Shown piece after piece: positions 8,692 through 36,605 of a DNA stretch of 39,434 bases. Every line of letters begins with the position of its first letter. Within the stretch, counting starts at the first letter, position 1. A program made the position numbers and the translations under genes. Source of the DNA: Candidatus Eiseniibacteriota bacterium (lineage in GTDB: Bacteria; Eisenbacteria; RBG-16-71-46; CAIMUX01); the NCBI GenBank assembly GCA_903844735.1, contig CAIMUX010000095.1, positions 1 to 39,434 on the forward strand, in the 5' to 3' direction. Under the pieces are notes generated by a model that ran no database searches, was not told the origin of the DNA, and saw nothing but the letters and a program-made list of their open reading frames with translations.

Positions 8692-9546
8692 TCATGGTTC
8701 GCATGAGCCGGACCCTGCGGTTTCCCGCACTCCGCCGATCCTCCCGAGCAAGCGCAGGAACCCATCAAGGATCGTCAGCGGGTGGGGCGGGCACCCGGGA
8801 ATGTATAAGTCCACCGGCACCTCGGCGCCTGCTCCTCCCATCTGCTCCGGCTGCTCCCGATATAGACCACCGCTGATGGCGCAGGCCCCGACTGCGATGA
8901 CGAGCTTGGGGGACGGGACGGCGTCGTACGTCTTCCGCAAGGCCAGGCGCATGTTCGTCGTGACCGGTCCGGTGATGAGCAGGCCATCGGCATGGCGGGG
9001 CGCGGCGACATACTGGATGCCGAAGCGACCGATGTCCCAGCCGATGGTGGTCAGCACGTTGGTGTCGGCCTCGCAGGCGTTGCAGCCGCCGGCGCTCACG
9101 ACGCGCAACTTCAGCGACCGGCCGAAGAGCCGGCGGGTCTTGTCCTCGAGGGCCACGGCCAAGCGCGGCCCCTCGGCGCCGAGAAGCAGGTCCTCGCGCG
9201 TCCGCGTGGCGAGTCGGTAGTCGCCTCCGCAGGCGAGGGCGTCTGCGGGACAGGCCGCCCGGCATTCGTCACAGAAGAGACACCGACCCAGGTCGATCTG
9301 CATGCGACTCTTCTTCGGCCGACCCCCTTCGTTCCCCCGTGTGCTTTCTTTGCTCTCCGCGCCCCCCACGATCCGGATCGCATCCGCAGGGCAGACCTCG
9401 GCGCAGGCGCGGCAGCCATCCACGCATCTCTCGGCCTCCAGCTCCGGTCGCCCACGGAATCGCTCCGGCAGCGGCGGCGGCGGTCCATCGGGAAACGCCG
9501 GCGTGCGAAAGCCCTGATGACGGCGTGCTCGAAGGATTCTCAGCAT
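8692..9546 (-). CDS. fused HyfH-HyfI subunit: 2x[4Fe-4S] ferredoxin plus NuoB-like small subunit
   Basis: A 284-residue electron-transfer subunit. The ferredoxin half has cysteines 41, 45, 48 and 52 (first spacing is three residues, not the usual two), then 89, 92, 95 and 99, each set ending in CP. A charged 25-residue linker separates the two motifs. The NuoB/PSST-like half carries the N2-type cluster ligands Cys155 and Cys158 (GGCNACE), Cys222 (VGACA) and Cys252 (PGCPP). In hydrogenase 4 and complex I these are two separate proteins. The chosen ATG at 9546 lies 16 bp after the large-subunit stop, and upstream in-frame codons fall inside that gene. It should carry electrons from a soluble donor to the site between small and large subunit. 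Confidence 0.9.
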   Translation of the reverse strand: MLRILRARRHQGFRTPAFPDGPPPPLPERFRGRPELEAERCVDGCRACAEVCPADAIRIVGGAESKESTRGNEGGRPKKSRMQIDLGRCLFCDECRAACPADALACGGDYRLATRTREDLLLGAEGPRLAVALEDKTRRLFGRSLKLRVVSAGGCNACEADTNVLTTIGWDIGRFGIQYVAAPRHADGLLITGPVTTNMRLALRKTYDAVPSPKLVIAVGACAISGGLYREQPEQMGGAGAEVPVDLYIPGCPPHPLTILDGFLRLLGRIGGVRETAGSGSCEP

Positions 9547-9562
9547 GGGGTCACCCGATTCT

Positions 9563-11086
9563 TCATAGATCGTGTCCGCAGTAGGACAGGTTGAAACTCT
9601 TGTTACACAGCGGGAAGTCGGAGATCGGCTCGCCACGCATCGCCAGGGCGAGTCCGAACCAGTTGTGAAACGAAGGATCGACGATCTTGTATCGCGCGAA
9701 ACGCCCCGCGCCGTCGGTCAGGACTGCGTGGCAGATCTCGCCGCGCCATCCTTCGACCAGCGATACGACCAGGCTCTCCGGCGCCGGCGGCGCGACGGCG
9801 GCCAGGGTTCCACCCCGCGGCAGGTTCGTCAACTGCTCCTGGATGAACGCGACCGAGCGCAGGATCTCGATCTCGCGAACGTGGGCGCGGCCGAACACAT
9901 CGCCGGTGTCCCAGGTCACCGTCGGGATATGGGTGAACCGGTAGATTCCGAAGGGGGCATCCTGGCGAACGTCCCGGTCGACGCCGCACGCCCGGGCCGC
10001 GGGTCCCACCAGACCGATCTCCATGCAAGTCTCGCGGCTGACCGTGCCGGTGTCCTCAAAGCGCTCGGTGACCGACGGCGTATCCCACATCAAGCCGATC
10101 GCCTCCGCGGCGTCCCGAGCGGCTTCGGCCAGGCGATCCTGCAATTCGGCGATCATCCCGGCGGTGACGTCGTACCCGACGCCTCCGGGTCGGATGAAGC
10201 CGCGGCCGAAACGGCTGCCGCAAAGAAGCGCCGACAGATTGAGGACGTCGCCGCGGATTCGCCCGCAGTACGACGCCGTGGGCAGAAAACCGACATCCCC
10301 GGCGAGTGCCCCGAGATCGCCCACGTGGTTGGCGATGCGCTCCAACTCCAGGGCGACCCCGCGCAGAGCCATGGCGCGCGGAGGGACGGTGCTGTGGGCG
10401 AGAGCTTCCCGGGCTTGGCAGTAGGCCGTGGCGTGGCCGATGCTCGTGTCGCCAGCCGCGGTTTCCATGAACGGCATCGTGCGTTTGTCGGGCCCCCCGA
10501 CGAGGGCGCGCTCAATCCCGCGGTGCTGGTAGCCGAGGGCGATCTCCAGATGGAGGACCACCTCGCCGTGGCATTGGAAGCGAAAGTGGCCCGGTTCGAT
10601 AACCCCCGCGTGTACGGGCCCGACAGCGACCTCGTGGATCTCCTCTCCTTCGACGGAGTAGAAATCTGTGACGCCGGGACGTGGATCTTGCTCGGGATCG
10701 CGGCCCCAGGCGTCTCGGCCGGGCTGCCACGAGCGATGAAACCTCATCGGCTTCAGCCACGGATGTCCCTCGGGAACGACACCCCATTGCTCCGCAAGCT
10801 CCCGTTCGAACAGGTGCGCCTGCGGGCACGCTCCGGTCAGTGCCGGGTAGCGACCGTCGACCGCCATCGCCAGCACTCCCAAGGGGCCTGCGTCCGGCAT
10901 GGCCAGGACGGCAAACACGAGGAGGCGTCGGTCCTCTTGCGGCCGGCCGAAGAACGCAACCAATCGGGCGCCGTCGCGGACCGAGTCGATCACCGTCTCT
11001 CGGAACGTCACGACCGGAACCACCGGCACGTCTCCCACGGGCAGAACCTCCGCGTTCTCCGTGTGGACCAGGCGACGGCCGGACAT
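9563..11086 (-). CDS. HyfG/HycE-like large subunit (NuoC-NuoD fusion) lacking all NiFe cysteines
   Basis: A 507-residue protein. The N-terminal ~150 residues are NuoC-like (30 kDa domain, with HLFERELAEQWGV), and the rest is NuoD/HycE-like (from GPVHAGVIEPGHFRF). In true group-4 hydrogenases the first metal motif is CGxC before an H. Here it reads AGDTSIGH near residue 212, so both cysteines are replaced (Ala, Thr). The C-terminal DPCxxC is DPSFHN near residue 470 (Ser, Asn). A [NiFe] centre therefore cannot be ligated in the usual way. The protein is not truncated: it continues to FNLSYCGHDL. This is the mark of Ehr-type complexes. ATG 11086 lies 2 bp after the preceding stop; the much longer open frame upstream overlaps the previous gene and is rejected. 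Confidence 0.92.
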   Translation of the reverse strand: MSGRRLVHTENAEVLPVGDVPVVPVVTFRETVIDSVRDGARLVAFFGRPQEDRRLLVFAVLAMPDAGPLGVLAMAVDGRYPALTGACPQAHLFERELAEQWGVVPEGHPWLKPMRFHRSWQPGRDAWGRDPEQDPRPGVTDFYSVEGEEIHEVAVGPVHAGVIEPGHFRFQCHGEVVLHLEIALGYQHRGIERALVGGPDKRTMPFMETAAGDTSIGHATAYCQAREALAHSTVPPRAMALRGVALELERIANHVGDLGALAGDVGFLPTASYCGRIRGDVLNLSALLCGSRFGRGFIRPGGVGYDVTAGMIAELQDRLAEAARDAAEAIGLMWDTPSVTERFEDTGTVSRETCMEIGLVGPAARACGVDRDVRQDAPFGIYRFTHIPTVTWDTGDVFGRAHVREIEILRSVAFIQEQLTNLPRGGTLAAVAPPAPESLVVSLVEGWRGEICHAVLTDGAGRFARYKIVDPSFHNWFGLALAMRGEPISDFPLCNKSFNLSYCGHDL

Positions 11087-11088
11087 CG

Positions 11089-12651
11089 CTACTGCACTCC
11101 CAGGGCCCGCAGGGCTGTGTTGATCGTCTCGCGTAGGGGTAGAGGGATCCAAAGCCCAAGAACCAGCACGCCCATCCCCAGAACAAGCGGCGGGAGCCAG
11201 GCAAGGATCGACTCCTTCGACGGAACCATCGCCGCCCCGGTCTGCTCTTTCCGCGTCTTCGGTCCTTCCTGTGTCCCTGCCTCTTCCGGCGCCCCCAACC
11301 GTCCCTGCGCCCCCGCTCCCTCCCGCTCCCCGAACGACATGCGCAGGAAAACGCCGGCCATCCCGACAAAGATCACCGTCAGGAACACCAGGTACAGAAC
11401 CGCCACCAGCCAGTGACGCCCGTCGAGCGCGCCCTTCAGGATGGTGAACTCGCTGACGAAAAGGCCGAACGGCGGCGTTCCGGTGATGGCGAAGAAACCG
11501 GCCACCCAGAGAACCCCCGTGATGGGCAGCACACGGAGCATGCCGTTGACCCGCGTGGTCGACTTGTCCTGGTAGGCGGCCAGAATGTTGCCCGAGAGGA
11601 GAAACAACATCGCCTTGGTCAGCGAATGGTTCACCGTGTGCAACAGCGCCCCGAAGCCGGCCGCGCCGCCGAGCCCCACGCCGAGTGCTGCAATCCCCAT
11701 GTGCTCGACGCTTGAGTAGGCCAGCATTCGCTTGTAGTCGGCCTGCCCCACAATGAATGCCGCCGCGAAGCCCATCGAAACGAGGCCGAGAAGAACGAGC
11801 AGGCCACCGCTGAACGCCCCCAGACCGGCCGCCACGCAGACCGCATGCACGCGCAGGATCGCCAGGAAAGCGCAGTTCAGCAGAGCGCCGGAGAGCAGCG
11901 CGGACACCACGGAAGGCGCCTCGCTGTGCGCATCGGGCAGCCATGTGTGCAACGGCGCCAACCCCATCTTGGTCCCGTACCCGACCAGCAGGAGCAGAAA
12001 CGCTGCTTTCAGCCAGACCGGATCAAGCAGACTTGCCTGCCGCACCAGGCCGGCCACCGTGAGAGGCCCACTTCCGGACGACGACGCCACCACGAGGAAG
12101 AAGTTGCCGAGCAGAGCGATGGCGATCCCCACCGAGCAAATGAGCAGATATTTCCAGGCAGCCTCGAGTGAGCCCGAATTCCTGTGGAAGTGGATCAAGG
12201 GCGCGCTGGCCAGGGTCGTCGCCTCCACCGCCACCCACATCAGGCCAAAGTGCTGCGACGCGATCACCAGCGTCATGGTCCCCAGGAAAAGCAGGAAGCA
12301 GCCGGTGAAAGTCGCCTCGGGTGCGTTGGAAAAGAGGAACCCGTCTTCGGCGGGGGGCCGCGGGTGCTTCTCGCGAGCGAGGTAGCCGACCGCATAGATC
12401 GCCGCCGCCAAGGTGAGGACACTGGTGATGCCGAGAAACAGCAACTCCAGCGACCCCAGCGCCAGCCAGCCGCCAAGGGCCGTGAGCGGTCGTGCAAACC
12501 ATGCGCGTGCCAGCAGGCCGGCGTGAGCGATGGGAACGGCGACGAGCAGCGCCCGGCGCACGCGATCCCCCCGGAGGAAGAAGGCCAGTGTCCCCGCAAG
12601 CAGCGGGAGCATGATCAGCGCAGGAATCACCGGAACCATCCCGCGGTGCAC
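11089..12651 (-). CDS. HyfF-like proton-pumping membrane subunit (NuoN/Mrp antiporter family)
   Basis: About 516-520 residues with 13 or more hydrophobic segments. Conserved charges of the antiporter-like fold are visible: Glu in the TM5-like GLMWVAVEATT, Lys in GYGTKMGLAPLHTWLPDAHSEAPS, and Lys in the TM12-like NHSLTKAMLFLLSG. The discontinuous-helix motif HTWLPDAHSEAPSVVSALLSG is well preserved. A hydrophilic, low-complexity insert of roughly 30 residues (about 438-468) interrupts the C-terminal membrane region. Two starts are possible, GTG 12651 or ATG 12639; neither has a strong Shine-Dalgarno. The next gene begins 2 bp downstream. It should form one of two ion channels of the complex. 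Confidence 0.93.
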   Translation of the reverse strand: MHRGMVPVIPALIMLPLLAGTLAFFLRGDRVRRALLVAVPIAHAGLLARAWFARPLTALGGWLALGSLELLFLGITSVLTLAAAIYAVGYLAREKHPRPPAEDGFLFSNAPEATFTGCFLLFLGTMTLVIASQHFGLMWVAVEATTLASAPLIHFHRNSGSLEAAWKYLLICSVGIAIALLGNFFLVVASSSGSGPLTVAGLVRQASLLDPVWLKAAFLLLLVGYGTKMGLAPLHTWLPDAHSEAPSVVSALLSGALLNCAFLAILRVHAVCVAAGLGAFSGGLLVLLGLVSMGFAAAFIVGQADYKRMLAYSSVEHMGIAALGVGLGGAAGFGALLHTVNHSLTKAMLFLLSGNILAAYQDKSTTRVNGMLRVLPITGVLWVAGFFAITGTPPFGLFVSEFTILKGALDGRHWLVAVLYLVFLTVIFVGMAGVFLRMSFGEREGAGAQGRLGAPEEAGTQEGPKTRKEQTGAAMVPSKESILAWLPPLVLGMGVLVLGLWIPLPLRETINTALRALGVQ

Positions 12652-12702
12652 GCGTGCCGGGTCGGAACCTGTCGGTGTGGCCGCCGTGCCGCGTTCATCG
12701 CC

Positions 12703-13368
12703 TCAATCCTTCAACGCCGACAGACGGTCGGCGTCGATGTGATCGAACTCGCGGTTGATCTGGTAGACCATGATGCCCATCACGAAGACCGCCATGAAGG
12801 CGTCGAGAAGGATCCCCATCTCCACCAGAAACGGTTCCTTCTCCGCGAAGGCGAGGCCGAAAGCGAAAATCCCGTTCTCCATCGCGAGATAACCGAGAAC
12901 CTGCGTGATCGCCTTGCGCCGGGCCACGATCATGAAGAGGCCCACCATGATGGTGAACAGCGCCACCGGGACCAGGAGGGAGGAAGTCGCCGTCGGAGGA
13001 AGCGGAAGCCGCCCGCCCAGCCAGAGGGCGAGAGCCAGAAGCCCGCCTCCGGTGAGGAGCGAAGGTGTATAACCGACAATCGGCGCGAGCTCTCGGCGGG
13101 ATCCCGACTCGCGCACGGCGCGAATCAGAAGCGCCGGAAAGACGATCCCCTTCAATACGGTACTTACAGCGGCCTGCAGCACGACCCGCAACCCCAGGTG
13201 CCCCCCTTGGGAGACAAGGGGAATCAACCCGAGCAGTATGCCCTGCAACGCCACGACGCGGATGCACGAACCGAGCCGGCTGGCGCCCAGGAGACGCATG
13301 TTGGCCAGAACCACGAATACGATCAGCGTATCGACCAGGCCCTTCAGGGCTGTTTCCCAACCGTTCAC
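12703..13368 (-). CDS. HyfE-like membrane subunit (NuoK-related)
   Basis: A 221-residue protein with about seven hydrophobic helices. Motifs match HyfE: QAAVSTVLKGIVFPALL in the middle, ARRKAITQVLGYLAMENGIFAFG, and VEMGILLDAFMAVFVMGIMVYQINREFDHID. The acidic residues inside the last helices (LVEMGILLDAF) correspond to NuoK positions involved in proton transfer. Its GTG start overlaps the TGA of the preceding HyfC-like gene by 4 bp (GTGA), a sign of translational coupling. Confidence 0.92.
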   Translation of the reverse strand: MNGWETALKGLVDTLIVFVVLANMRLLGASRLGSCIRVVALQGILLGLIPLVSQGGHLGLRVVLQAAVSTVLKGIVFPALLIRAVRESGSRRELAPIVGYTPSLLTGGGLLALALWLGGRLPLPPTATSSLLVPVALFTIMVGLFMIVARRKAITQVLGYLAMENGIFAFGLAFAEKEPFLVEMGILLDAFMAVFVMGIMVYQINREFDHIDADRLSALKD

Positions 13369-14279
13369 GCCAGCACCATGAGAAGAGCCAACAGGGAAAG
13401 AAGCGTCGCTCCTACCAGCAACTGCGGCACGCGAACAAGCCGCAGACGCGCCATTGTCGACTCGATCACGCCGGTGACCACCGCCAGCAGGAACATCCCG
13501 GCCAGACCGCCGAGCATCGCCGGCACCGGCGGCGCCCCGTGTAGAGGAATGAGGATCCCGACCGCCAGCGACCCAAGGAGCCAGAGCTTCAGCGCCGCGC
13601 CGTATTGCAGAAACGCCAGGTCGGGACCGCTGTGGTCGAGGATCAGGACCTCGTGGATCATCGTCAGTTCCAGGTGCGTGTTCGGATCGTCAAATGGGAT
13701 CCGCGCGTTCTCCGCTAGGTAGACAACCCCGAACGCCGCGGCCACGAGCAACAGCACAGGCCCGCCGCCTTCCACGAGCGATACCGGGGCCAGGCGCGTA
13801 TATACATCCGACAGCGAGACGCTCCCGGCCTCGCGGGCCATCGCCACCAGACCCAGAAGCAGCGCCGGTTCGGCCAGGGCCGAAAACGTGACCTCACGGC
13901 TTGCGCCCATCCCTTCGAAACTGGAGCCGGTGTCGAGCGCCGCGGTCACAAGACTGAAGCGCGCGAGCCCCAGCAGATAGGCAAAGAGCAACAGGTCCCC
14001 GGGAAACGCCAGCAGCGCGCGCGCATTCGCGAACGGCACGATCGCGAGCGCCACCAGCAGGGCCGCCAGCGCCGCGCTGGGTCCGGCGCGGAACACCCAG
14101 GTGGTGGTCGTGCTGTAGACCACGTCCTTGCGGAGGAGCTTGCCGAGATCGAAGTAGGCCTGAAGCAACGGCTGTCCCCGGCGTCCCGCCAGCGCCGCCT
14201 TGGTCCGGTTGATCACCCCGGGGAGCAGCGGCGCCAACAGCAACGCCAGCAGAACATGGACGACGGCTACGACGATCAC
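13365..14279 (-). CDS. HyfC/HycD-like membrane anchor (NuoH family)
   Basis: A 304-residue integral membrane protein with eight predicted helices. It corresponds to NuoH, which links the peripheral arm to the membrane arm. Diagnostic NuoH/HycD stretches are GQPLLQAYFDLGKLLRKD near residues 35-52, GSSFEGMGASRE near 118-129, and ENARIPFDDPNTHLELTMIHE near 192-212. The glutamates and aspartates of the first two loops, which form the entry channel in complex I, are retained. GTG start 14279 follows the HyfB-like stop by 4 bp. Confidence 0.94.
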   Translation of the reverse strand: MIVVAVVHVLLALLLAPLLPGVINRTKAALAGRRGQPLLQAYFDLGKLLRKDVVYSTTTTWVFRAGPSAALAALLVALAIVPFANARALLAFPGDLLLFAYLLGLARFSLVTAALDTGSSFEGMGASREVTFSALAEPALLLGLVAMAREAGSVSLSDVYTRLAPVSLVEGGGPVLLLVAAAFGVVYLAENARIPFDDPNTHLELTMIHEVLILDHSGPDLAFLQYGAALKLWLLGSLAVGILIPLHGAPPVPAMLGGLAGMFLLAVVTGVIESTMARLRLVRVPQLLVGATLLSLLALLMVLA

Positions 14280-14283
14280 CAGG

Positions 14284-16269
14284 TCACCCCAGCTTCCAGG
14301 CGAGGAGAATGAGCAACGTCAGAGCGATGTAGAGAACGTACAACTGAATCATGCCTCCTTGTAGCGGGCGGAACCTCAGCAAGAAGCGGCCGATGGCTGC
14401 GAAGACGGGTGCGTAGATCCCGTCCTGGACCGGATCCGGCGTGGTCGTCCGCAGGTGAGCCTCCTTCGGAAACAGCCCAACAGGTGTTGTGATCTCGCGG
14501 CGCGTCCACCCGGATAGACCCAAGAGACTCGTCAACGGGTGAGCGTAACTCGACGCCGTGTACTGCATCCGTGTCGTGGGAGCGGCATATCCGCAGTCCC
14601 AGGTCGGGGCCGATACCACACGCCGGCGGGCGAGCAGCCTCCGGCGCGCCAATGCCATCCCGAGAAACGTGACGAGCAGAGCCCCGGCCCCCAGCACGAC
14701 GAGTCGCAGGGAGCCCGCGACCCAGGTGACCGACGTCTGCATCTCGGCGGGGGATGCACCGGACGCGACCCGAATCGCCTCTGCCGCGGCGCCGGGCAAG
14801 AGCGGGGCACACAATCCGACAACCCCGCACCCGGCCGCAAGAATCACCATCGCCACGCGCATGGCGGGAGCGACTTCGCCGGCATCGGCCGCAGCGGCGC
14901 TCCGCGGTTCCCCGAGGAACACGATGCCGAACGCCTTCGTGAAGCAGGCCGCCGCCAGGCCGCCGATGAGCGCCAGCGCGGTGATGACCACGACTCCCGA
15001 GACGGCGAACGATCCGGTGGCTGAGGTGGCCGCGCAGAAGGCGGCCAGATAGACCATGGCCTCGCTGACGAAGCCGTTCAGTGGCGGAAGTCCGCAGATT
15101 GCGACGGCCCCAACCAGAAATGAGGCGCCCGTCACCGGCATGTGTCGCAGCAGCCCGCCAAGAGAATCGATCTCCCGCGTGTGGGCGGCATGCGCAACGG
15201 CCCCGGCGGCAAGGAAGAGGAGCCCCTTGAAAAGCGCATGATTGAACACGTGGAGCAGTGCGCCTCCGAACCCGAGGACCGCGACGACCGGGAGATGGTG
15301 GCTGCGGCCGAGCAAGCCGACCCCGATCCCCAGAGCAATGATCCCGATGTTCTCCACGCTGTGGTAGGCCAGGAGCCGCTTGAGATCATGCTGCGCCAGA
15401 GCAAAGAGCACGCCGTAGACACCCGAAACCGCACCGATGCCCACCAGCACCCAGCCGAACCACGGCGGCGGCGGCCCGAGAAACGTCAGCACGCGCAGAA
15501 GTCCGTAGATCCCCGTCTTGATCATCACGCCCGACATCACCGCGGACACATGGCTGGGCGCTGCCGGGTGCGCCTCCGGCAGCCAGCCATGAAGAGGAAC
15601 AAAGCCGGCCTTCGTGCCGAACCCGACGATCGCCAGGAGGAAGATGATCCCCGACAGCCGCGGCCCGCCCTCCCCGATCCGGAAGGCGTTGAAGTCGAGG
15701 GTGTCGCAGCCCCGCCCCAGGAGCAGAAACATCACGAGAAGACCGGCCGTGCCGATGTGCGTGGCGATCAAGTAGGTCCGCCCGGCCCGACGGACTTCGG
15801 GCCTTCCGTCTTCGAACATGACTAAAAAGAACGAGGCCACCGACATCAGTTCCCAGGCGAGGAGCAGGAGCATGCCGTTCCTCGCGACCACCACGAGAAG
15901 CATGCCGGCGATCAACACGTTGTACATCAGCCAGGAAGTAGCCACCGTCCGACGAGGTCCGCCGTCGCGCAAGCCGGCTGCCCCGTAGAGGGCGGCGATC
16001 GCGCCGAGGAGCAGGATCGGGATGATAAAAAAAGCCGAAAGACCGTCGAGGCCGATGGAGAGGGAGCCGAGGGGCATCTCCCAGGGCAGGTCCAGGGTCA
16101 TGACGTTCCCGCCCGCGAGGACGCGGATCGCGGGAATGATCCCCAGGACTGCCGCGGCGAAGACCGAACCGGCCGCGACCCGCCCGGAGCCCCGGCCATG
16201 ACCAGGCCAGGCCAAAGCCACCAGCCCACCGAGCAGCAATACGCCGAGAGAGGCGAGCAGGAGCGGCAT
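14284..16269 (-). CDS. HyfB/HycC-like proton-pumping membrane subunit (NuoL family)
   Basis: A 661-residue protein with ~16 membrane segments. Pump residues of the antiporter fold are present: Glu in LLLAWELMSVASFF, Lys in GFGTKAGFVPLHGWLPEAHPAAPSH (TM7), Lys in GVMIKTGIYGLLR (TM8) and Lys in NHALFKGLLFLAAGA (TM12). The C-terminal HyfB region with WDCGYAAPTTRMQYTASSY is intact. The ATG at 16269 starts 2 bp after the regulator's TAG. An open frame continues upstream to 16530, but that part lies entirely inside the regulator gene in another frame. Confidence 0.95.
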   Translation of the reverse strand: MPLLLASLGVLLLGGLVALAWPGHGRGSGRVAAGSVFAAAVLGIIPAIRVLAGGNVMTLDLPWEMPLGSLSIGLDGLSAFFIIPILLLGAIAALYGAAGLRDGGPRRTVATSWLMYNVLIAGMLLVVVARNGMLLLLAWELMSVASFFLVMFEDGRPEVRRAGRTYLIATHIGTAGLLVMFLLLGRGCDTLDFNAFRIGEGGPRLSGIIFLLAIVGFGTKAGFVPLHGWLPEAHPAAPSHVSAVMSGVMIKTGIYGLLRVLTFLGPPPPWFGWVLVGIGAVSGVYGVLFALAQHDLKRLLAYHSVENIGIIALGIGVGLLGRSHHLPVVAVLGFGGALLHVFNHALFKGLLFLAAGAVAHAAHTREIDSLGGLLRHMPVTGASFLVGAVAICGLPPLNGFVSEAMVYLAAFCAATSATGSFAVSGVVVITALALIGGLAAACFTKAFGIVFLGEPRSAAAADAGEVAPAMRVAMVILAAGCGVVGLCAPLLPGAAAEAIRVASGASPAEMQTSVTWVAGSLRLVVLGAGALLVTFLGMALARRRLLARRRVVSAPTWDCGYAAPTTRMQYTASSYAHPLTSLLGLSGWTRREITTPVGLFPKEAHLRTTTPDPVQDGIYAPVFAAIGRFLLRFRPLQGGMIQLYVLYIALTLLILLAWKLG

Positions 16270-16271
16270 GA

Positions 16272-16988
16272 CTATGCGGTGCTCCCCGGCGGGATGTTCC
16301 CCGACGGACTCCCCGGCGCCTCCGCCTCCGTCCGACGCAGTCCCGCGACGATCTCCTCGCGGGAGCCCGGGCGGGCGAGCACCGACTTGAACGACTCGTC
16401 CCGCAGAACAAACGCCAGACGGGAAAGCACGTGCAGGTGGGCCCGAATGGTTGGGCTCACGATGGTGAAGAGCGTCTGCACCGGAAGTCCGTCGATGGCG
16501 TCGAAATCGATCGGGTACTCGAGGAAACACAGAGTGATCGTGGGGCGAGGGATGTGCATCACGATCGGGTTACGGACATGCGGGATGGCGATGCCCTCGC
16601 CGATGCCGGTCGATCCCAGCGACTCGCGCGCCATCAACACCTGAAACAGAAATGAGCGGTCGACCTCCTCCGGCAGGGGCATCACATCGACAACCGCCTG
16701 AAGCACCGAGGGCTTGTCCCGCCCGCCGACGCGGTAGTGGATCCCGCCGATGGAGAGCGCCTCGACCAGGGTCGGGAGCAACCCCTGCAGCGGATCCTCC
16801 GGCTCGCGAAAAAGATCCGGGGAGACATTGATCCGTTGGGCCGTGGCCAACTCGAGCAGCTCCGCACGATTGAACCGGTACTGCTCGTTCACCCGGTAGG
16901 CCGGGAGCCGCCCTTCCTTGATCCAGCGGTAGATGGTCTTTTCCGAGACCGCCAGGAGACGGGCCGCCTCCCGGACACCAAGCTGCAT
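16272..16988 (-). CDS. transcription regulator: excisionase/MerR-type HTH fused to PTS EIIA(Ntr/Fru) domain
   Basis: A 238-residue protein. Residues 1-55 are a helix-turn-helix of the excisionase type (VREAARLLAVSEKTIYRWIKEGRLPAYRV). Residues ~68-225 are a PTS EIIA type-2 domain. The phospho-accepting histidine is His137 in GIAIPHVR, and the rest of the fold (ITLCFLEYPIDFDAIDG, LFTIVSP, HLHVLSRLA) is intact. ATG 16988 is preferred over GTG 17018 because AAGGGG lies just before it. It is the first gene of the hydrogenase-like operon, 2 bp before the HyfB-like gene, so it most likely controls that operon in response to phosphorylation state. No EI or HPr gene is in the window. Confidence 0.9.
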   Translation of the reverse strand: MQLGVREAARLLAVSEKTIYRWIKEGRLPAYRVNEQYRFNRAELLELATAQRINVSPDLFREPEDPLQGLLPTLVEALSIGGIHYRVGGRDKPSVLQAVVDVMPLPEEVDRSFLFQVLMARESLGSTGIGEGIAIPHVRNPIVMHIPRPTITLCFLEYPIDFDAIDGLPVQTLFTIVSPTIRAHLHVLSRLAFVLRDESFKSVLARPGSREEIVAGLRRTEAEAPGSPSGNIPPGSTA

Positions 16989-17001: not shown

Positions 17002-17039
17002 GTGTCAACGGTGGACACGACCGGACGCGTTCGGACACG
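17002..17039 (-). promoter_or_regulatory. repeated GGACACG boxes, possible operator of the Ehr operon
   Basis: GGACACG occurs at 17013-17019 and 17033-17039, 20 bp apart. GTGTC (17002-17006) faces GACAC (17014-17018) as an inverted repeat. The boxes lie between the predicted transcription start and the regulator's ATG, where a repressor or auto-regulator would act. Confidence 0.4.
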
Positions 17040-17045
17040 GGCTGC

Positions 17046-17074
17046 AGTATGCTCGCGTGTGTGCCGGATGTCAA
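17046..17074 (-). promoter_or_regulatory. sigma-70-type promoter of the Ehr operon
   Basis: On the minus strand, TTGACA (17074-17069) is followed after exactly 17 bases by CATACT (17051-17046). The site lies just after the stop of the upstream secreted-protein gene and about 60 bp before ATG 16988. The operon can therefore be expressed independently of the genes upstream. Confidence 0.6.
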
Positions 17075-31599: not shown

Positions 31600-33588
31600 A
31601 TGTGCGGCATAGCCGGCGTGCTGAACCTCAACGGTCCAGGGGATGTCTCGGAAGATCTTCTCCGGCGGATGATCGGCGCCTTCCGCTACCGCGGTCCCGA
31701 TCAGTCCGGCACGTACTTGGACGACCAGGCCGGTCTGGCCCACGCGCGGCTCAGCATCATCGGGCTGGATGACGGCTGTCAGCCCATCGGCAATGAGGCC
31801 GGCTCCCTCTGGATCGTCTTCAACGGTGAGGCCTACAACTACCTGGAGCTGAGGCAGGAGCTGGAGAACCGCGGGCGCCGCTTTTCCACCACCACCGACA
31901 CGGAGGTGCTCCTGCAGCTCTTCGAGGAGTTCGGTCCCCACTGCTTGGAGATGATTAATGGCCAGTTCGCCATCGCCATCTGGGACAACGTGAAGCATGA
32001 GCTGTTCTTGGCCCGTGACCGGATCGGGGTACGCCCCCTGTTTTACACCCTGGTCGGTGGGCGCCTGCTGTTCGCGTCGGAGGTCAAGGCCCTCTTCCAG
32101 GACCCCGCCGTGCCCAGGGAGATCGACCCCCGATCCCTCTGTCAGGTCTTCACCTGCTGGTCCACCGTCAGTCCGAGAAACGTGTTTCGGGGTGTCCAAG
32201 AGCTCCCTCCCGGCCATTTTCTGTCGGTGAAGGCCGGCAAGATCAGCACGGAACGATTCTGGGAGATCCCGTTCTATCCTCGCGGCGGTGAATGGCAGGG
32301 CTCGATGGCCGAAGCCGAGGAAGAGCTTCGCCTGCTGATGAAGGACGCAGTGCGCCTCAGGCTACGGGCAGATGTCCCGGTAGGAGCCTATCTGAGCGGT
32401 GGACTCGACTCGTCCGTTCTGACGACGTTGATTTCCAGCCATTTCAACAACCGCCTGCGGACCTTCTCCCTCGGATTCGAGGAGAGCGGCCTGGATGAGA
32501 CATCCTTTCAAGATGAACTGGTCCAGTCGCTTGGGACCGACCACAGCCACATCATGGTCAGTAACGAGGCGATCCGGGATCTGTTCCCCACCGTCATCTG
32601 GCACTGTGAAACGCCGCTCCTGCGGACTGCGCCGGTGCCTCTTTGCCTCCTGTCGGGCTTGGTGCAGGAACACGGGTTCAAGGTGGTTCTGACCGGCGAG
32701 GGGGGCGACGAGGTTTTCGGCGGGTACAATATCTTCAAGGAAGCGAAGGTCCGCGCCTTTTGGGGGCGGGTGCCCGAGTCAAAGCTGCGTCCCCTTTTAG
32801 TCCAGCGCCTCTACCCCTATGTTTTTGAGAACCCCGCGCGAGGGCGGCTCTTCCTGCAGCAGTTCTTTGCCGTGCAACCGGGCGACCTGCAGGATCCGCT
32901 GTTCTCGCACCGGATTCGCTGGGAGAACGGTCGGAAGAACACGGCATTCTTCTCTCAGCAGACGCAGGCGGAGCTCGCCGGCTATCACCCCATCGATGAG
33001 GTCACGGCTCGGCTCCCGGGCGACTTTCCAGACCGGGATGTCTTGGCGAAGGCTCAGTTTCTTGAGACGGCGATCTTTCTGCCCAGCTACCTGTTGTCCT
33101 CGCAGGGAGACCGAGTGGCCATGACCCATTCCGTGGAGCAGCGCCACCCGTTCCTGGACTACCGGGTCGTTGACTTCGCCGCCCAGCTTCCTCCACATTG
33201 GAAGCTCAGCGGGCTGAACGAGAAGTACCTGCTCAAACGTGCCTTCAAAGGCTTGATCCCGGAGCGGATCAGGATTAGGCCGAAGCAGCCGTATCGGGCG
33301 CCCATCCGCGACGTGTTCTTCCGCGAGGGCGGGGACGGGTATGCGGAGGAGTTTCTCTCGGAGGGGTCCCTCCGCCGGACCGGCTATTTCGACCCCGGCC
33401 GAGTGGGGCACCTGGTGGCAAAGCAGAAGAGAACCGACGGGACAATCCCCAACGAATCGCAGAACATGGCCCTGGCGGGGATTCTCTCGACGCAGATCCT
33501 GCATCAGCAGTTCGTCGAAGCCTTCTCCCGGTCCGAGCCGCTGGTGCCGGACCTGGTGGTGGACAAACGCGCGAGACGGGAGAGGTGA
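31600..33588 (+). CDS. asnB: asparagine synthase (glutamine-hydrolysing) family amidotransferase
   Basis: A 662-residue two-domain enzyme. Cys2 (MCGIAGV) is the N-terminal nucleophile of the class II glutaminase domain. FRYRGPDQSG, LAHARLSIIG and VFNGEAYNYLELR complete that active site. The synthase half has the PP-loop YLSGGLDSS (about 264-272), the LTGEGGDEVFGGY box and EQRHPFLDYRVV. The residues expected for ATP-dependent amidation of a carboxylate are present. It leads a cluster with an NAD-synthetase-like enzyme, an ACP and an acyl-AMP ligase, overlapping the next gene (TGATG). The substrate may be something other than aspartate, as for amidotransferases in exosortase/EPS loci. No strong ribosome-binding site precedes the ATG; GGAG is 14-16 nt away. 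Confidence 0.93.
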   Translation: MCGIAGVLNLNGPGDVSEDLLRRMIGAFRYRGPDQSGTYLDDQAGLAHARLSIIGLDDGCQPIGNEAGSLWIVFNGEAYNYLELRQELENRGRRFSTTTDTEVLLQLFEEFGPHCLEMINGQFAIAIWDNVKHELFLARDRIGVRPLFYTLVGGRLLFASEVKALFQDPAVPREIDPRSLCQVFTCWSTVSPRNVFRGVQELPPGHFLSVKAGKISTERFWEIPFYPRGGEWQGSMAEAEEELRLLMKDAVRLRLRADVPVGAYLSGGLDSSVLTTLISSHFNNRLRTFSLGFEESGLDETSFQDELVQSLGTDHSHIMVSNEAIRDLFPTVIWHCETPLLRTAPVPLCLLSGLVQEHGFKVVLTGEGGDEVFGGYNIFKEAKVRAFWGRVPESKLRPLLVQRLYPYVFENPARGRLFLQQFFAVQPGDLQDPLFSHRIRWENGRKNTAFFSQQTQAELAGYHPIDEVTARLPGDFPDRDVLAKAQFLETAIFLPSYLLSSQGDRVAMTHSVEQRHPFLDYRVVDFAAQLPPHWKLSGLNEKYLLKRAFKGLIPERIRIRPKQPYRAPIRDVFFREGGDGYAEEFLSEGSLRRTGYFDPGRVGHLVAKQKRTDGTIPNESQNMALAGILSTQILHQQFVEAFSRSEPLVPDLVVDKRARRER

Positions 33589-34577
33589 TGGAACAGCGAC
33601 CATTCTCCAGGGATGTCCTGCGACTGGATCCTGCGCAGGAAGTTGAGAAGATCTGCGGCCGCCTGCGCGACCTGTTGGCTCACCAGCTCAAGCGTCGCGG
33701 CCTGGTTGTCGGCCTCTCCGGCGGGATCGACAGCAGTGTCACCGCGGCCCTGTCGGTCAGGGCTCTGGGACCCAAGCGCGTCTTTGGGCTGCACATGCCG
33801 GAGCGTCACTCAGCGGAAGAGACCCTCATGCTGAGCGGGTCCGTGGCTACGCACCTGGGGATCGACTCTGTCCACGAAGACATCACCGGCATGCTCGAGG
33901 CGGCCGGCTGTTACCGCCGCTATCAAGATGCCGTCCGCAGGGTTCTCCCGGAATACGGTGACGGGTGGCGCTCCAAGATCGTCATCTCCAGCGCCATGGA
34001 GAACCGCGGCTTTGCGCTCTTCTACATTGTCGCTCAGGGCCCGGACGGGGTCGAGCACAAGCTGCGGCTGCCCGCCGATGCCTACCTGGAGATCGTGGCC
34101 GCCACGAATTTCAAGCAGCGTACCCGCAAGATGCTGGAGTACTATCACGCGGACCGTCTCCACTTCGCCGTAACGGGCACACCCAATCGCCTGGAATACG
34201 ACCAGGGATTCTTCGTGAAGCTGGGGGACGGCGCCGCGGACGTGAAACCGATCGCTCACTTGTACAAAAGCCAAGTGTATCAGCTTGCGGAGCATCTGGG
34301 GCTTCCCGAGGACATTCGGAGTCGGCCTCCCACGACCGACACCTACTCGCTTCCCCAGGGACAGGACGAGTTCTACTTCTCTCTCCCGTATGGTCTGATG
34401 GATCTGTGTCTGTATGGGAAGAATCATGGGGTTGCCGCCACCGAGGTGGCCGCCGCGGCCGGACTGACCGGCACGCAGGTGGAGCATGTCTACGCCGACA
34501 TCGACGTTAAGAGGTCGACCACTCGGTATCTCCATCTGCCTCCGCTGCTGATCGAGAAGGTGGGGGAGATCGAATAG
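33588..34577 (+). CDS. nadE: NAD(+) synthetase-like, ammonia-dependent amide ligase
   Basis: A 329-residue protein of the NadE fold without a glutaminase domain. The PP-loop VVGLSGGIDSSVTAAL lies near 45-60. The later NadE segments TGTPNRLEYDQGFFVKLGDGAADVKPIAHLYKSQVYQLAEHL are well conserved. It is about 50 residues longer than typical small NadE; the extra part lies around residues 115-165. ATG 33588 overlaps the asnB stop by one base and has GGGAGAGG upstream, so the two are translationally coupled. It may make NAD in the normal way. In this company it may instead amidate another adenylated carboxylate. Confidence 0.88.
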   Translation: MEQRPFSRDVLRLDPAQEVEKICGRLRDLLAHQLKRRGLVVGLSGGIDSSVTAALSVRALGPKRVFGLHMPERHSAEETLMLSGSVATHLGIDSVHEDITGMLEAAGCYRRYQDAVRRVLPEYGDGWRSKIVISSAMENRGFALFYIVAQGPDGVEHKLRLPADAYLEIVAATNFKQRTRKMLEYYHADRLHFAVTGTPNRLEYDQGFFVKLGDGAADVKPIAHLYKSQVYQLAEHLGLPEDIRSRPPTTDTYSLPQGQDEFYFSLPYGLMDLCLYGKNHGVAATEVAAAAGLTGTQVEHVYADIDVKRSTTRYLHLPPLLIEKVGEIE

Positions 34578-34618
34578 AGCGGGCAGAGAGTGCTCCGCCG
34601 ATTCGGCGCACCGGATTG

Positions 34619-34670
34619 GATGGGCACACGGTGGCACCGGAGCGGGTGGGCACACGACGGCACTGGATCG
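34619..34670 (+). repeat. 26-bp imperfect tandem duplication
   Basis: The unit GATGGGCACACGGTGGCACC... (34619-34644) is repeated at 34645-34670 with 21 of 26 bases identical. It lies between the NadE-like gene and the ACP start and has no known role. Confidence 0.55.
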
Positions 34671-34694
34671 TTCAGTGATAGACGGGGTAGCAGA

Positions 34695-34949
34695 ATGGAA
34701 CAACTGAAACAGTCGATTCGGACGTATATCACCGAGAACTTCCTATTTGGAGATGACAGTGGACTCGATGACGCCGCGTCGTTGCTGGACAACGGCGTCA
34801 TCGACTCCACCGGGGTTCTTGAACTGGTTGCGTTTCTGGAAAAGCAGTTCGCCGTCAAGATCAACGATGAAGAGCTGTTGCCGGAGAATCTTGATTCCAT
34901 TACCAATGTTGCGGCATTTCTCTCGCGAAAGGGTGTGGGCGGGGCCTGA
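34695..34949 (+). CDS. acyl carrier protein
   Basis: An 84-residue acidic helical protein. The phosphopantetheine attachment site is Ser38 in DNGVIDSTGVLELV, the expected D-S-[LT] context. The helices around it (SIRTYITENFLF, LVAFLEKQFAVKINDEELLPENLDSI) match the ACP/PCP fold. It sits just before an acyl-AMP ligase, which would load it, and lies within a same-strand cluster. The ATG is preceded only by a weak GGGG, and the long upstream in-frame extension is rejected. Confidence 0.9.
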   Translation: MEQLKQSIRTYITENFLFGDDSGLDDAASLLDNGVIDSTGVLELVAFLEKQFAVKINDEELLPENLDSITNVAAFLSRKGVGGA

Positions 34950-34997
34950 GGGGCTGAACGTCAGGCCTGTCGACACAGGGAAGACAGTGCACCGGTT

Positions 34998-36605
34998 GTG
35001 AGGATGGGGTATGCGGACGAGACATCTCGAGACCCGGCCATGCTGATTCACCATCTCCTGGAGGAGAGTGCGGCGCGATATCCGGACAAGATAGCGGTGA
35101 TTTGCGACGATGTTCGTGAGACATATGCCGGCTTGAATGCGCAGTCCAACCGGCTGGCGGGGTGGCTCATCGGCCAGGGTGTGCTGCCGGGGGATCGGGT
35201 CGCGATCCTTCTGGAGAACAGCCTGGAGTACGTGGTCAGTTACTATGGTGTGCTGAAGGCCGGCGGCGTGGCGGCGCCCCTTGGGGGCGACCTGAAGTCG
35301 GATGGGCTGTTGCGGCTCCTGCACAAGCTGGACGGCAAGGCCCTGATTACCTCGGCGCGCTTTGAGACGTTGGTGCAGAGCGTTGTTCCCGACGCTACGT
35401 CGCTCACGTCGCTGTTGCTGGTCCGACCGACGCGGTCATGGAGCGGCCTATCACCTGCCGCGCATGCCTGGCATGATGCGGTGGGTAGCGGCACCATCGG
35501 CAGTTCTACCGCGAATCCGGCTCTCTCCCTGGACGAAGGGAGCATCGGCAGCATCATTTTCACGTCCGGCTCAACGGGTCAACCCAAGGGTGTGATGCTC
35601 TCCCACCGAAACGTCGTCACCAATACCTCGTCCATCTGCAGTTATCTTGAGCTTTCGTCGACGGATCGTCAGATGGTTGTTCTGCCGTTTCATTACGTGA
35701 TGGGAAAGTCGCTGCTCAATACCCACGTAGCGGTGGGTGGAAGTGTCGTCATCAACAACCGGTTTGCCTTCCCGGCAGACGTGCTCCAGCAGATGGTCCA
35801 AGAAGACGTGACCGGTTTCTCCGGCGTGCCCTCGACCTACGCCTATCTGCTGCACCGGTCGCCGCTGCGCTCGTATCGGGACCGGCTCGACTCCCTCCGC
35901 TATTGCTCTCAGGCTGGAGGGCACCTGGCCTGGCAGATCAAGGAGGAGCTGCTCGGTGCGTTGCCGACTCACACTCGCTTCTTCGTCATGTACGGTGCCA
36001 CTGAAGCGGCCGCGCGGTTGAGTTACGTGGAGCCTGAGCGGCTTCGGGAGAAGCGGGATTCCATCGGCATCCCGATCCAAGGAGTGCTCATGCGTGTGGT
36101 CGATGAGCAAGGGCAGGAGCTCCCCGTCGGCGAGGTCGGCGAGCTGGTTGCCGAGGGGGCGAACATCATGCCCGGGTACTGGCGGGACGCCGAGGCCACG
36201 GCGGTCGCGCTGGATGCCTGCGGTTACCACACCGGGGATCTGGGGTACCGGGACGAGGACGGATACTTCTTTGTCGTCGGGAGGAAGGACAACCAGCTCA
36301 AAGTGGGTGGTCACCGGCTCAATCCTCAGGAGATCGAGGATGCCTTGATCGAGACGGGACTGCTGATGGAAGTCGCGGTGCTCGGCCTGCCGGATCCCCT
36401 GCTGGGACAGCGACTGGCCGCGCTGGCGGTGCCTGCCGGGGATGATGTGGTAGCGGCGGAAATTCTCAGGCGCTGTGCCGAACGGCTCCCCCGTCACAAG
36501 CTGCCGGGACAGATCATGCTGGTGAGGGGTCTTCCGAAGAACACCAATGGTAAGGTTGATCGCGGTCGGTGTCGGGAACTACTGGAGAAGACGCTGGGAG
36601 AGTAG
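34998..36605 (+). CDS. AMP-dependent acyl/aryl-acid ligase (ACS/A-domain family)
   Basis: A protein of about 520-535 residues. It activates a carboxylic acid with ATP and passes it to CoA or, here more likely, to the neighbouring ACP. ANL-family core motifs are all present: SIIFTSGSTGQPKGVMLSH (A3), YGATEAA (A5), TGDLGYRDEDGY (A7), GRKDNQLKVGGHRLNP (A8 hinge) and the catalytic lysine in NTNGKVDR (A10). Family members of the exosortase-associated acyl-CoA ligase type are similar, but I cannot separate subfamilies by eye. Possible starts are GTG 34998, ATG 35004 and ATG 35040; all have weak ribosome-binding sites. Confidence 0.92.
   Translation: MRMGYADETSRDPAMLIHHLLEESAARYPDKIAVICDDVRETYAGLNAQSNRLAGWLIGQGVLPGDRVAILLENSLEYVVSYYGVLKAGGVAAPLGGDLKSDGLLRLLHKLDGKALITSARFETLVQSVVPDATSLTSLLLVRPTRSWSGLSPAAHAWHDAVGSGTIGSSTANPALSLDEGSIGSIIFTSGSTGQPKGVMLSHRNVVTNTSSICSYLELSSTDRQMVVLPFHYVMGKSLLNTHVAVGGSVVINNRFAFPADVLQQMVQEDVTGFSGVPSTYAYLLHRSPLRSYRDRLDSLRYCSQAGGHLAWQIKEELLGALPTHTRFFVMYGATEAAARLSYVEPERLREKRDSIGIPIQGVLMRVVDEQGQELPVGEVGELVAEGANIMPGYWRDAEATAVALDACGYHTGDLGYRDEDGYFFVVGRKDNQLKVGGHRLNPQEIEDALIETGLLMEVAVLGLPDPLLGQRLAALAVPAGDDVVAAEILRRCAERLPRHKLPGQIMLVRGLPKNTNGKVDRGRCRELLEKTLGE

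What the first reader, a model, noticed from the sequence alone, without database searches (positions are those of the whole stretch)
8692..16988. Complete hydrogenase-4-like operon whose catalytic subunit has no NiFe ligands (Ehr-type complex)
Seen: six subunits (HyfB-, C-, E-, F-, G-like and a fused H-I) in one overlapping operon, with pump residues of both antiporter-like subunits and all N2-type cysteines kept. The large subunit has AGDT instead of CGxC near residue 212 and DPSFHN instead of DPCxxC near residue 470. No hypABCDEF or endopeptidase gene is present, and the C-terminus has no cleavage-type extension. Known: complexes of this sort have been called Ehr and placed between group-4 hydrogenases and complex I. 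Inference: it is an ion-pumping oxidoreductase with an unidentified electron acceptor or donor at the old NiFe site.
Basis: partly seen in the sequence, partly recalled or inferred. Interest (0 to 1): 0.75.

Follow-up and report, generated by a model that had tools for sequence, protein, structure and literature searches.

The report
Metal-free hydrogenase-like ion pump operon
This is a bacterial membrane machine built like a hydrogen-making ion pump whose catalytic subunit has lost all four metal-holding cysteines; it belongs to the little-understood, already named Ehr family, and its relatives suggest that even the iron-sulfur wiring can be lost while the ion-pumping parts are kept.

Summary
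The operon is real and is a member of the known but functionally unsolved Ehr (energy-converting hydrogenase-related) family. Seven genes, not six, form the unit: an HTH-PTS-EIIA regulator plus HyfB, C, E, F, G and a fused HyfH-I. This order recurs in most of 80 loci from many phyla, and no other neighbour does. The large subunit has lost all four NiFe cysteines (now A211, T214, S501, G504). The lack of a C-terminal extension is not diagnostic. In the host's phylum 8 of 11 module-bearing genomes, one of them 100% complete, lack HypB, HypD and HypF, so no NiFe(CN)2CO cofactor is needed. The window complex keeps all 12 cluster cysteines and its pump residues. My best reading is a redox-driven ion pump with a metal-free acceptor pocket. 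New here: the conserved regulator with a candidate TGTCC-N5-TGTCC operator; a four-cysteine sister complex in Hyp-less genomes; and relatives that lost N2-cluster ligands under purifying selection while keeping pump residues. The last point leaves open redox-independent ion transport in part of the family.

The parts
17046..17074 (-). sigma-70-like promoter TTGACA-N17-CATACT before the regulator gene
   Evidence: 10 of 12 consensus bases; shuffles mean 0.1; position
17013..17037 (-). candidate operator: three head-to-tail copies TGTCC-GAACG-CGTCC-GGTCG-TGTCC
   Evidence: same repeat at N5 spacing upstream of the same gene in 13 of 59 loci (shuffled mean 0.07). In the window alone two matches are not significant
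16272..16988 (-). regulator: HTH_17 (excisionase/MerR-like) + PTS EIIA (PtsN-like) domain; phospho-acceptor His conserved
   Evidence: PF12728, PF00359; syntenic in most loci; His 60/60; H147 counted from GTG 17018 = H137 from ATG 16988
14284..16269 (-). HyfB-like antiporter-type membrane subunit
   Evidence: hydrogenase 4 subunit B, 613 bits; pump residues kept
13365..14279 (-). HyfC/NuoH-like membrane subunit
   Evidence: PF00146, 1.2e-31
12703..13368 (-). HyfE-like membrane subunit
   Evidence: PF00420; hydrogenase 4 membrane subunit, 3.4e-27
11089..12639 (-). HyfF-like antiporter-type membrane subunit (an alternative GTG start lies at 12651)
   Evidence: hydrogenase 4 subunit F, 363 bits
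9563..11086 (-). HyfG-like large subunit (30 kDa + 49 kDa domains, 507 aa) without NiFe cysteines
   Evidence: AlphaFold2 model: Z 42.3 to E. coli HycE 7z0s_E over 480 residues
10445..10456 (-). L1 site: A211-G212-D213-T214 in place of CGxC
   Evidence: G212 and D213 in 81 of 81 module sequences
9575..9586 (-). true L2 site: S501-Y-C503-G504 in place of CxxC
   Evidence: S501 and G504 in 81 of 81
9659..9679 (-).
   Evidence: aligns with HycE ATYANW, not DPCYSC
8692..9546 (-). fused HyfH-HyfI subunit: two [4Fe-4S] ferredoxin-type sites (9391-9426 and 9250-9282) and N2-type site (8791-9084)
   Evidence: (Cys conserved in 72-78 of 78)

Best explanation
This is an Ehr-type complex: a hydrogenase-4/complex-I-like membrane ion pump that has lost the NiFe active site. 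Shown by sequence: the whole HyfBCEFG-HI set, an intact row of three [4Fe-4S] sites, intact pump residues, loss of all four NiFe ligands, and relatives that live without the Hyp machinery. Inferred: low-potential electrons (probably ferredoxin) enter at the two ferredoxin-type clusters, pass N2, and reduce (or are taken from) a small organic two-electron partner in the metal-free pocket where NiFe used to sit. The conformational change runs through HyfC/HyfE into the antiporter-like HyfF and HyfB, which move H+ or Na+. The operon is probably autoregulated by its own HTH-EIIA protein, so that the phosphorylation state of the PTS decides when it is made.
For: Subunit identities and fold. All 12 cluster cysteines and pump Glu/Lys residues invariant or nearly so in about 75 module loci. 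Four NiFe cysteines replaced, with G212, D213, S501 and G504 in 81 of 81. 8 of 11 module genomes of the phylum lack HypB, HypD and HypF, including G074 (100% complete) and G087 (97%). Tree: cysteine-less proteins group together (87/75), sister to a four-cysteine HyfG-like clade (100/99). Conserved gene order with the EIIA regulator, phospho-His 60/60, operator-like repeats.
Against: No partner molecule is identified and no recurrent oxidoreductase gene flanks the operon. The Nqo4 residues that bind the quinone head (H38, Y87; own knowledge) align with I163 and G212. Some relatives have lost N2 or ferredoxin-cluster ligands but kept pump residues under purifying selection, so redox drive is not universal in the family. 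The AlphaFold2 model is unsure exactly at the pocket (154-165 and 494-507).
Confidence: 0.55

Rival explanations
1. It is a ferredoxin:quinone oxidoreductase: the emptied NiFe pocket binds menaquinone, as in complex I.
For: The large subunit is nearly as close in fold to the 49 kDa subunit of complex I (Z about 39) as to HycE (42.3). The host genome has futalosine-pathway menaquinone genes and two further complex-I-type NuoD proteins. Relatives occur in aerobes.
Against: H38 and Y87 equivalents are absent. The HyfC motif DDPNTHLELTMIHE is nearly invariant here and recalls hydrogenase-type rather than NuoH-type subunits (own knowledge). In G016, G018, G022 and G027 the module is the only complex-I-49kDa protein and neither MqnA/D nor MenB is found; this is weak, because UbiA-type prenyltransferases are present in all 15 genomes tested and MAGs are incomplete.
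Confidence: 0.25
2. In this family the machine has become, or is becoming, an ion transporter that no longer needs electron flow (for example a gated antiporter in which Fe-S sites are structural or sensory).
For: N2 ligands are S-C-A-H in two genera and all four are lost in Allomeiothermus silvanus. Ferredoxin-type ligands are partly lost in several other genomes; proteobacterial, Rhodococcus and four-Cys relatives have N2 only and no ferredoxin domain. Yet pump Glu/Lys residues stay. The N2-less HI pair has dN/dS about 0.15.
Against: The window's own complex and nearly all close module members keep all 12 cysteines, which is hard to explain without a redox role.
Confidence: 0.15
3. It is a group-4 [NiFe] hydrogenase with altered ligands.
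For: Closest solved structure is E. coli formate hydrogenlyase subunit 5. A cysteine (C503) sits beside the old L2 position. HypD is present in 41 of 50 module genomes, nearly all from other phyla.
Against: None of the four ligands remains. C503 is A or S in other members (L069, L101, L102, L106, L107). Hyp proteins are missing from 8 of 11 module genomes of the phylum, the same rate as in genomes without the module (Fisher p = 1). The host's hyp genes lie beside another hydrogenase on C129.
Confidence: 0.02
4. It is a sulfane (polysulfide) reductase like MBS of Pyrococcus, with sulfur chemistry in the pocket.
For: MBS is also a hydrogenase-derived complex and is a (weak) sequence match (6u8y_L, 7.8e-17).
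Against: MBS is a far weaker match than HycE, MBH or complex I. MBS keeps one cysteine pair of the site (own knowledge) and this protein keeps none. Relatives occur in aerobes.
Confidence: 0.03

Closest known systems
Ehr complexes (energy-converting hydrogenase-related; Marreiros et al. 2013, cited in PMC4378227 and PMC6349859; reported in Sulfobacillus, Nitrospira, Margulisbacteria, Saganbacteria, Melainabacteria)
   Same: Hyf/Nuo-like subunit set with antiporter-type subunits; large subunit without the CxxC motifs; function unknown.
   Different: The dedicated HTH-PTS-EIIA regulator with operator-like repeats, the fused HyfH-I subunit, and the Fe-S ligand losses in relatives were not found in the open papers searched.
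Formate hydrogenlyase-2 / hydrogenase-4 of E. coli (HyfABCDEFGHI)
   Same: Homologous B, C, E, F, G, H and I subunits in the same order.
   Different: No HyfA, no HyfD, H and I fused; no NiFe ligands, no C-terminal extension, no HyfR/FhlA-type regulator.
Respiratory complex I, subunits NuoBCDHIKLMN
   Same: Fold of the large subunit; PF00346, PF01058 and PF00146 families.
   Different: No NuoEFG in the operon; quinone-head residues H38/Y87 not present.
Four-cysteine HyfG-like sister clade (L110-L114)
   Same: Nearest four-cysteine relatives: same FPLxNKSFNLxY C-terminus, same BCEFG-I order.
   Different: All four cysteines present; no ferredoxin domain in HI; all five genomes lack HypB, HypD and HypF.

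Membership tests
Ehr complex | group-4 hydrogenase / complex-I-like subunit set including antiporter-type subunits | tested here: met
Ehr complex | large subunit lacks the NiFe-binding CxxC motifs | tested here: met
   A211, T214, S501, G504
Ehr complex | large subunit clusters with published Ehr sequences | not testable with these tools
   no published Ehr reference sequences were at hand (Marreiros 2013 is not open); it clusters with other cysteine-less HyfG-like proteins
group-4 [NiFe] hydrogenase | four cysteine ligands in L1 and L2 | tested here: not met
group-4 [NiFe] hydrogenase | dependence on Hyp maturation | tested here: not met
   8 of 11 module genomes of the phylum lack HypB, HypD and HypF; host genome itself has them for another hydrogenase
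group-4 [NiFe] hydrogenase | C-terminal extension cleaved by a HycI-type peptidase | tested here: inconclusive
   no extension, but four-cysteine relatives also lack one
respiratory complex I | quinone-head ligands His38/Tyr87 (Thermus Nqo4 numbering) in the 49 kDa subunit | tested here: not met
   aligned to I163 and G212
respiratory complex I | NADH module NuoEFG encoded with the complex | tested here: not met
   not in the operon or as a recurrent neighbour
formate hydrogenlyase-2 | HyfA/HyfD and a formate dehydrogenase encoded with the complex | tested here: not met
membrane-bound sulfane reductase | one retained cysteine pair at the former NiFe site | tested here: not met
   no cysteine at any of the four positions; the definition is from own knowledge

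The most novel reading that the evidence does not exclude
The HyfBCEFG-HI family has repeatedly been cut loose from electron transfer: first the NiFe site, then (in separate lineages) the N2 ligands or the ferredoxin-type ligands, while the antiporter residues stay under selection. At least some members would then be complex-I-derived ion transporters driven or gated by something other than electron flow, under PTS control.
Probability: 0.25. Interest if true: 0.85.

Novelty: new variant of a known kind. Interest (0 to 1): 0.6.

Why it matters
Ehr complexes have been named for years without a function. This locus gives a sharply defined seven-gene version spread over many phyla, with a regulator, a candidate operator and a corrected active-site alignment, all of which can be tested. 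The relatives that lack Hyp proteins, N2 ligands or ferredoxin ligands form a natural series that asks directly what redox chemistry contributes to ion pumping in the complex I superfamily.

Tried and rejected
Recurrent oxidoreductase, ferredoxin or hydrogenase-maturation neighbours: none among flanking ORFs of 80 loci. Sigma-54 control, as for FhlA/HyfR: 2 strict matches in 60 upstream regions, and TGGCAC below shuffled. HypD as a requirement: 41 of 50 module genomes, nearly all from other phyla, have it, but there is no association within the phylum (Fisher p = 1), so it is read as lifestyle. Quinone absence by UbiA family: present in all 15 genomes tested, so uninformative. C503 as a new metal ligand: A or S in several members. 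Foldseek 'viral' and a second structure job were not used. Open literature searches found Ehr mentions but nothing on the HTH-EIIA gene.
Full report
What is there. Window 8692-16988 (minus strand) holds seven tightly packed genes in the order HTH-EIIA regulator, HyfB, HyfC, HyfE, HyfF, HyfG, fused HyfH-I. There are no internal stops. Most genes touch or overlap: the regulator stop is 2 nt from the HyfB start, and HyfC and HyfE overlap by 4 nt. A sigma-70-like promoter (TTGACA-N17-CATACT, 17046-17074) lies before the regulator.

The active site. phmmer against PDB chains ranks E. coli HycE (7z0s_E, 8e-44) first, then Thermus Nqo4, an NADH-quinone oxidoreductase C/D chain and Pyrococcus MBH. An AlphaFold2 model (mean pLDDT 87) matches 7z0s_E over 480 residues at Z 42.3 and complex I 49 kDa subunits at Z about 38-39. 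In the alignments the HycE motif CGIC falls on A211-G212-D213-T214, and DPCYSC falls on the last residues, N-L-S501-Y-C503-G504. All four ligands are therefore gone (A, T, S, G). In 81 module sequences G212, D213, S501 and G504 never vary; part of that set was fished with conserved peptides, so the DPSFHNWF stretch is somewhat favoured. C503 is not a fixed new ligand: it is A or S in L069, L101, L102, L106 and L107. The Nqo4 quinone residues H38 and Y87 (named from own knowledge) align with I163 and G212, so neither classical site is present.

Relatives. 80 loci from one scan, in Planctomycetota, Acidobacteriota, Deltaproteobacteria, Lentisphaerae, Verrucomicrobia, Elusimicrobia, Krumholzibacteriota and others, carry the same order TF-B-C-E-F-G-HI wherever the contig reaches far enough, with few exceptions. 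No other flanking family recurs apart from common histidine kinases, ABC proteins and a four-locus membrane protein. Some loci have a second HyfB gene (L040, L050, L066, L074). More distant cysteine-less complexes occur on plasmids of Variovorax, Allomeiothermus, Rhodococcus, Cupriavidus, Paraburkholderia, Rhizobium and Azospirillum. In a tree built without the L1/L2 columns, module plus these form one group (87/75), sister to a four-cysteine clade from the host's phylum (L110-L114), and the whole is separated (100/99) from HycE/HyfG, MBH and NuoD. With an outgroup of four-cysteine enzymes, cysteine loss is the simpler direction, but the root was not fixed.

Maturation test. The host genome does have HypB, HypD and HypF (contig C129, beside a NiFe hydrogenase and a HycI peptidase) and a second NiFe hydrogenase on C79, so hyp absence cannot be argued from this genome. 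It can be argued from its phylum. Of 47 genomes, 11 carry the module; 8 of the 11 lack HypD, HypF above cut-off and HypB above cut-off, among them G074 (100% complete) and G087 (97%). The frequency of Hyp genes is the same with and without the module (3/11 versus 11/36, Fisher p = 1). A NiFe(CN)2CO cofactor is therefore not needed by this family. In a wider set, nearly all from other phyla, 41 of 50 module genomes have HypD, which I read as anaerobic lifestyle.

An unexpected sister. L110-L114 keep the full RxCGxC...CxxC signature and end right after it with no extension, but their five genomes (completeness 80-99%) lack HypB, HypD and HypF altogether. These four cysteines should bind something other than the standard cofactor, if anything. 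This also shows that a missing C-terminal extension is no evidence for loss of the metal site.

The electron wire. The window's HI subunit and nearly all close relatives keep both ferredoxin-type sites and N2 (72-78 of 78 per cysteine). In the same phylum this breaks in two ways. L101 and L133 (G094, G087) keep the ferredoxin sites but have S-C-A-H at the N2 positions. L132, L134, L106, L100 and L109 keep N2 but have lost several ferredoxin-site cysteines. Allomeiothermus silvanus has lost all four N2 ligands and most of the first ferredoxin site. Proteobacterial and Rhodococcus relatives and L110-L114 have N2 only. The pump glutamates and lysines of HyfB and HyfF stay in nearly all of these (HyfF of L097 is an exception in the alignment, a few HyfB cells are partial, and the HyfF histidine is lost in L132 and L134). 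The two N2-less HI genes differ by dN 0.12 and dS 0.84, so they are under purifying selection. Redox drive is thus likely for this locus, but cannot be assumed for all kin.

Regulation. The regulator joins an excisionase/MerR-like HTH to a PtsN-like EIIA domain whose phospho-histidine is conserved in 60 of 60 sequences. Upstream of it a direct repeat [TC]GTCC-N5-[TC]GTCC occurs in 13 of 59 loci against 0.07 in dinucleotide shuffles, with a sharp peak at spacing 5; the window has three copies in a row at 17013-17037. Within the window alone two matches are not significant; the cross-locus recurrence is the evidence. The pattern was found by inspecting these same regions, so an independent set should confirm it. 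Binding and autoregulation are inferred.

Quinone test. The host has futalosine-pathway menaquinone genes. Of 50 module genomes 29 have MqnA/D, and 4 of the other 21 have MenB above cut-off. In G016, G018, G022 and G027 the module is the only complex-I-49kDa protein and neither route is seen, but UbiA-type prenyltransferases are present everywhere tested. The result leans against an obligatory quinone but is inconclusive.

Comparison with the known. Ehr complexes are already described as Hyf/Nuo-like sets without NiFe motifs and without known function (PMC6349859; PMC10284858; PMC4378227). The window complex fits that description, so the kind is known; the exact clade could not be compared with the original reference sequences.

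Noticed in passing
L110-L114 (L127-L131 with flanks): Four-cysteine (RxCGxC...CxxC) HyfG-like complexes without C-terminal extension, in five genomes that lack HypB, HypD and HypF: a NiFe-type cysteine site without the known cofactor machinery.
   Followed up: partly
L101, L133 (10623-11942), L096 (11137-12174): HI subunits that have lost three or all four N2-cluster ligands; the L101/L133 pair is under purifying selection and pump residues are kept.
   Followed up: partly
window 17013-17037 (-): Head-to-tail TGTCC-N5 repeats upstream of the HTH-EIIA gene, shared across phyla: candidate operator.
   Followed up: partly
L040, L050, L066, L074: Module variants with a second, tandem HyfB gene (three antiporter-type subunits in all).
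   Followed up: no
L095 4857-21380: Variovorax sp. PBL-E5 plasmid carries two different Ehr-like operons a few kb apart.
   Followed up: no
L120 3437-3733, L121 3349-3738: Rhizobial Ehr operons are also preceded by a small HTH protein overlapping hyfB; it did not match the HTH-EIIA profile in hmmsearch.
   Followed up: partly
window 31600-36605 (+): Asparagine-synthase, NAD-synthase-like and AMP-binding ligase genes in a row; possibly a biosynthetic cluster.
   Followed up: no
host phylum: The module is patchy: no other genome of the host's own order examined carries it, which suggests horizontal transfer.
   Followed up: no
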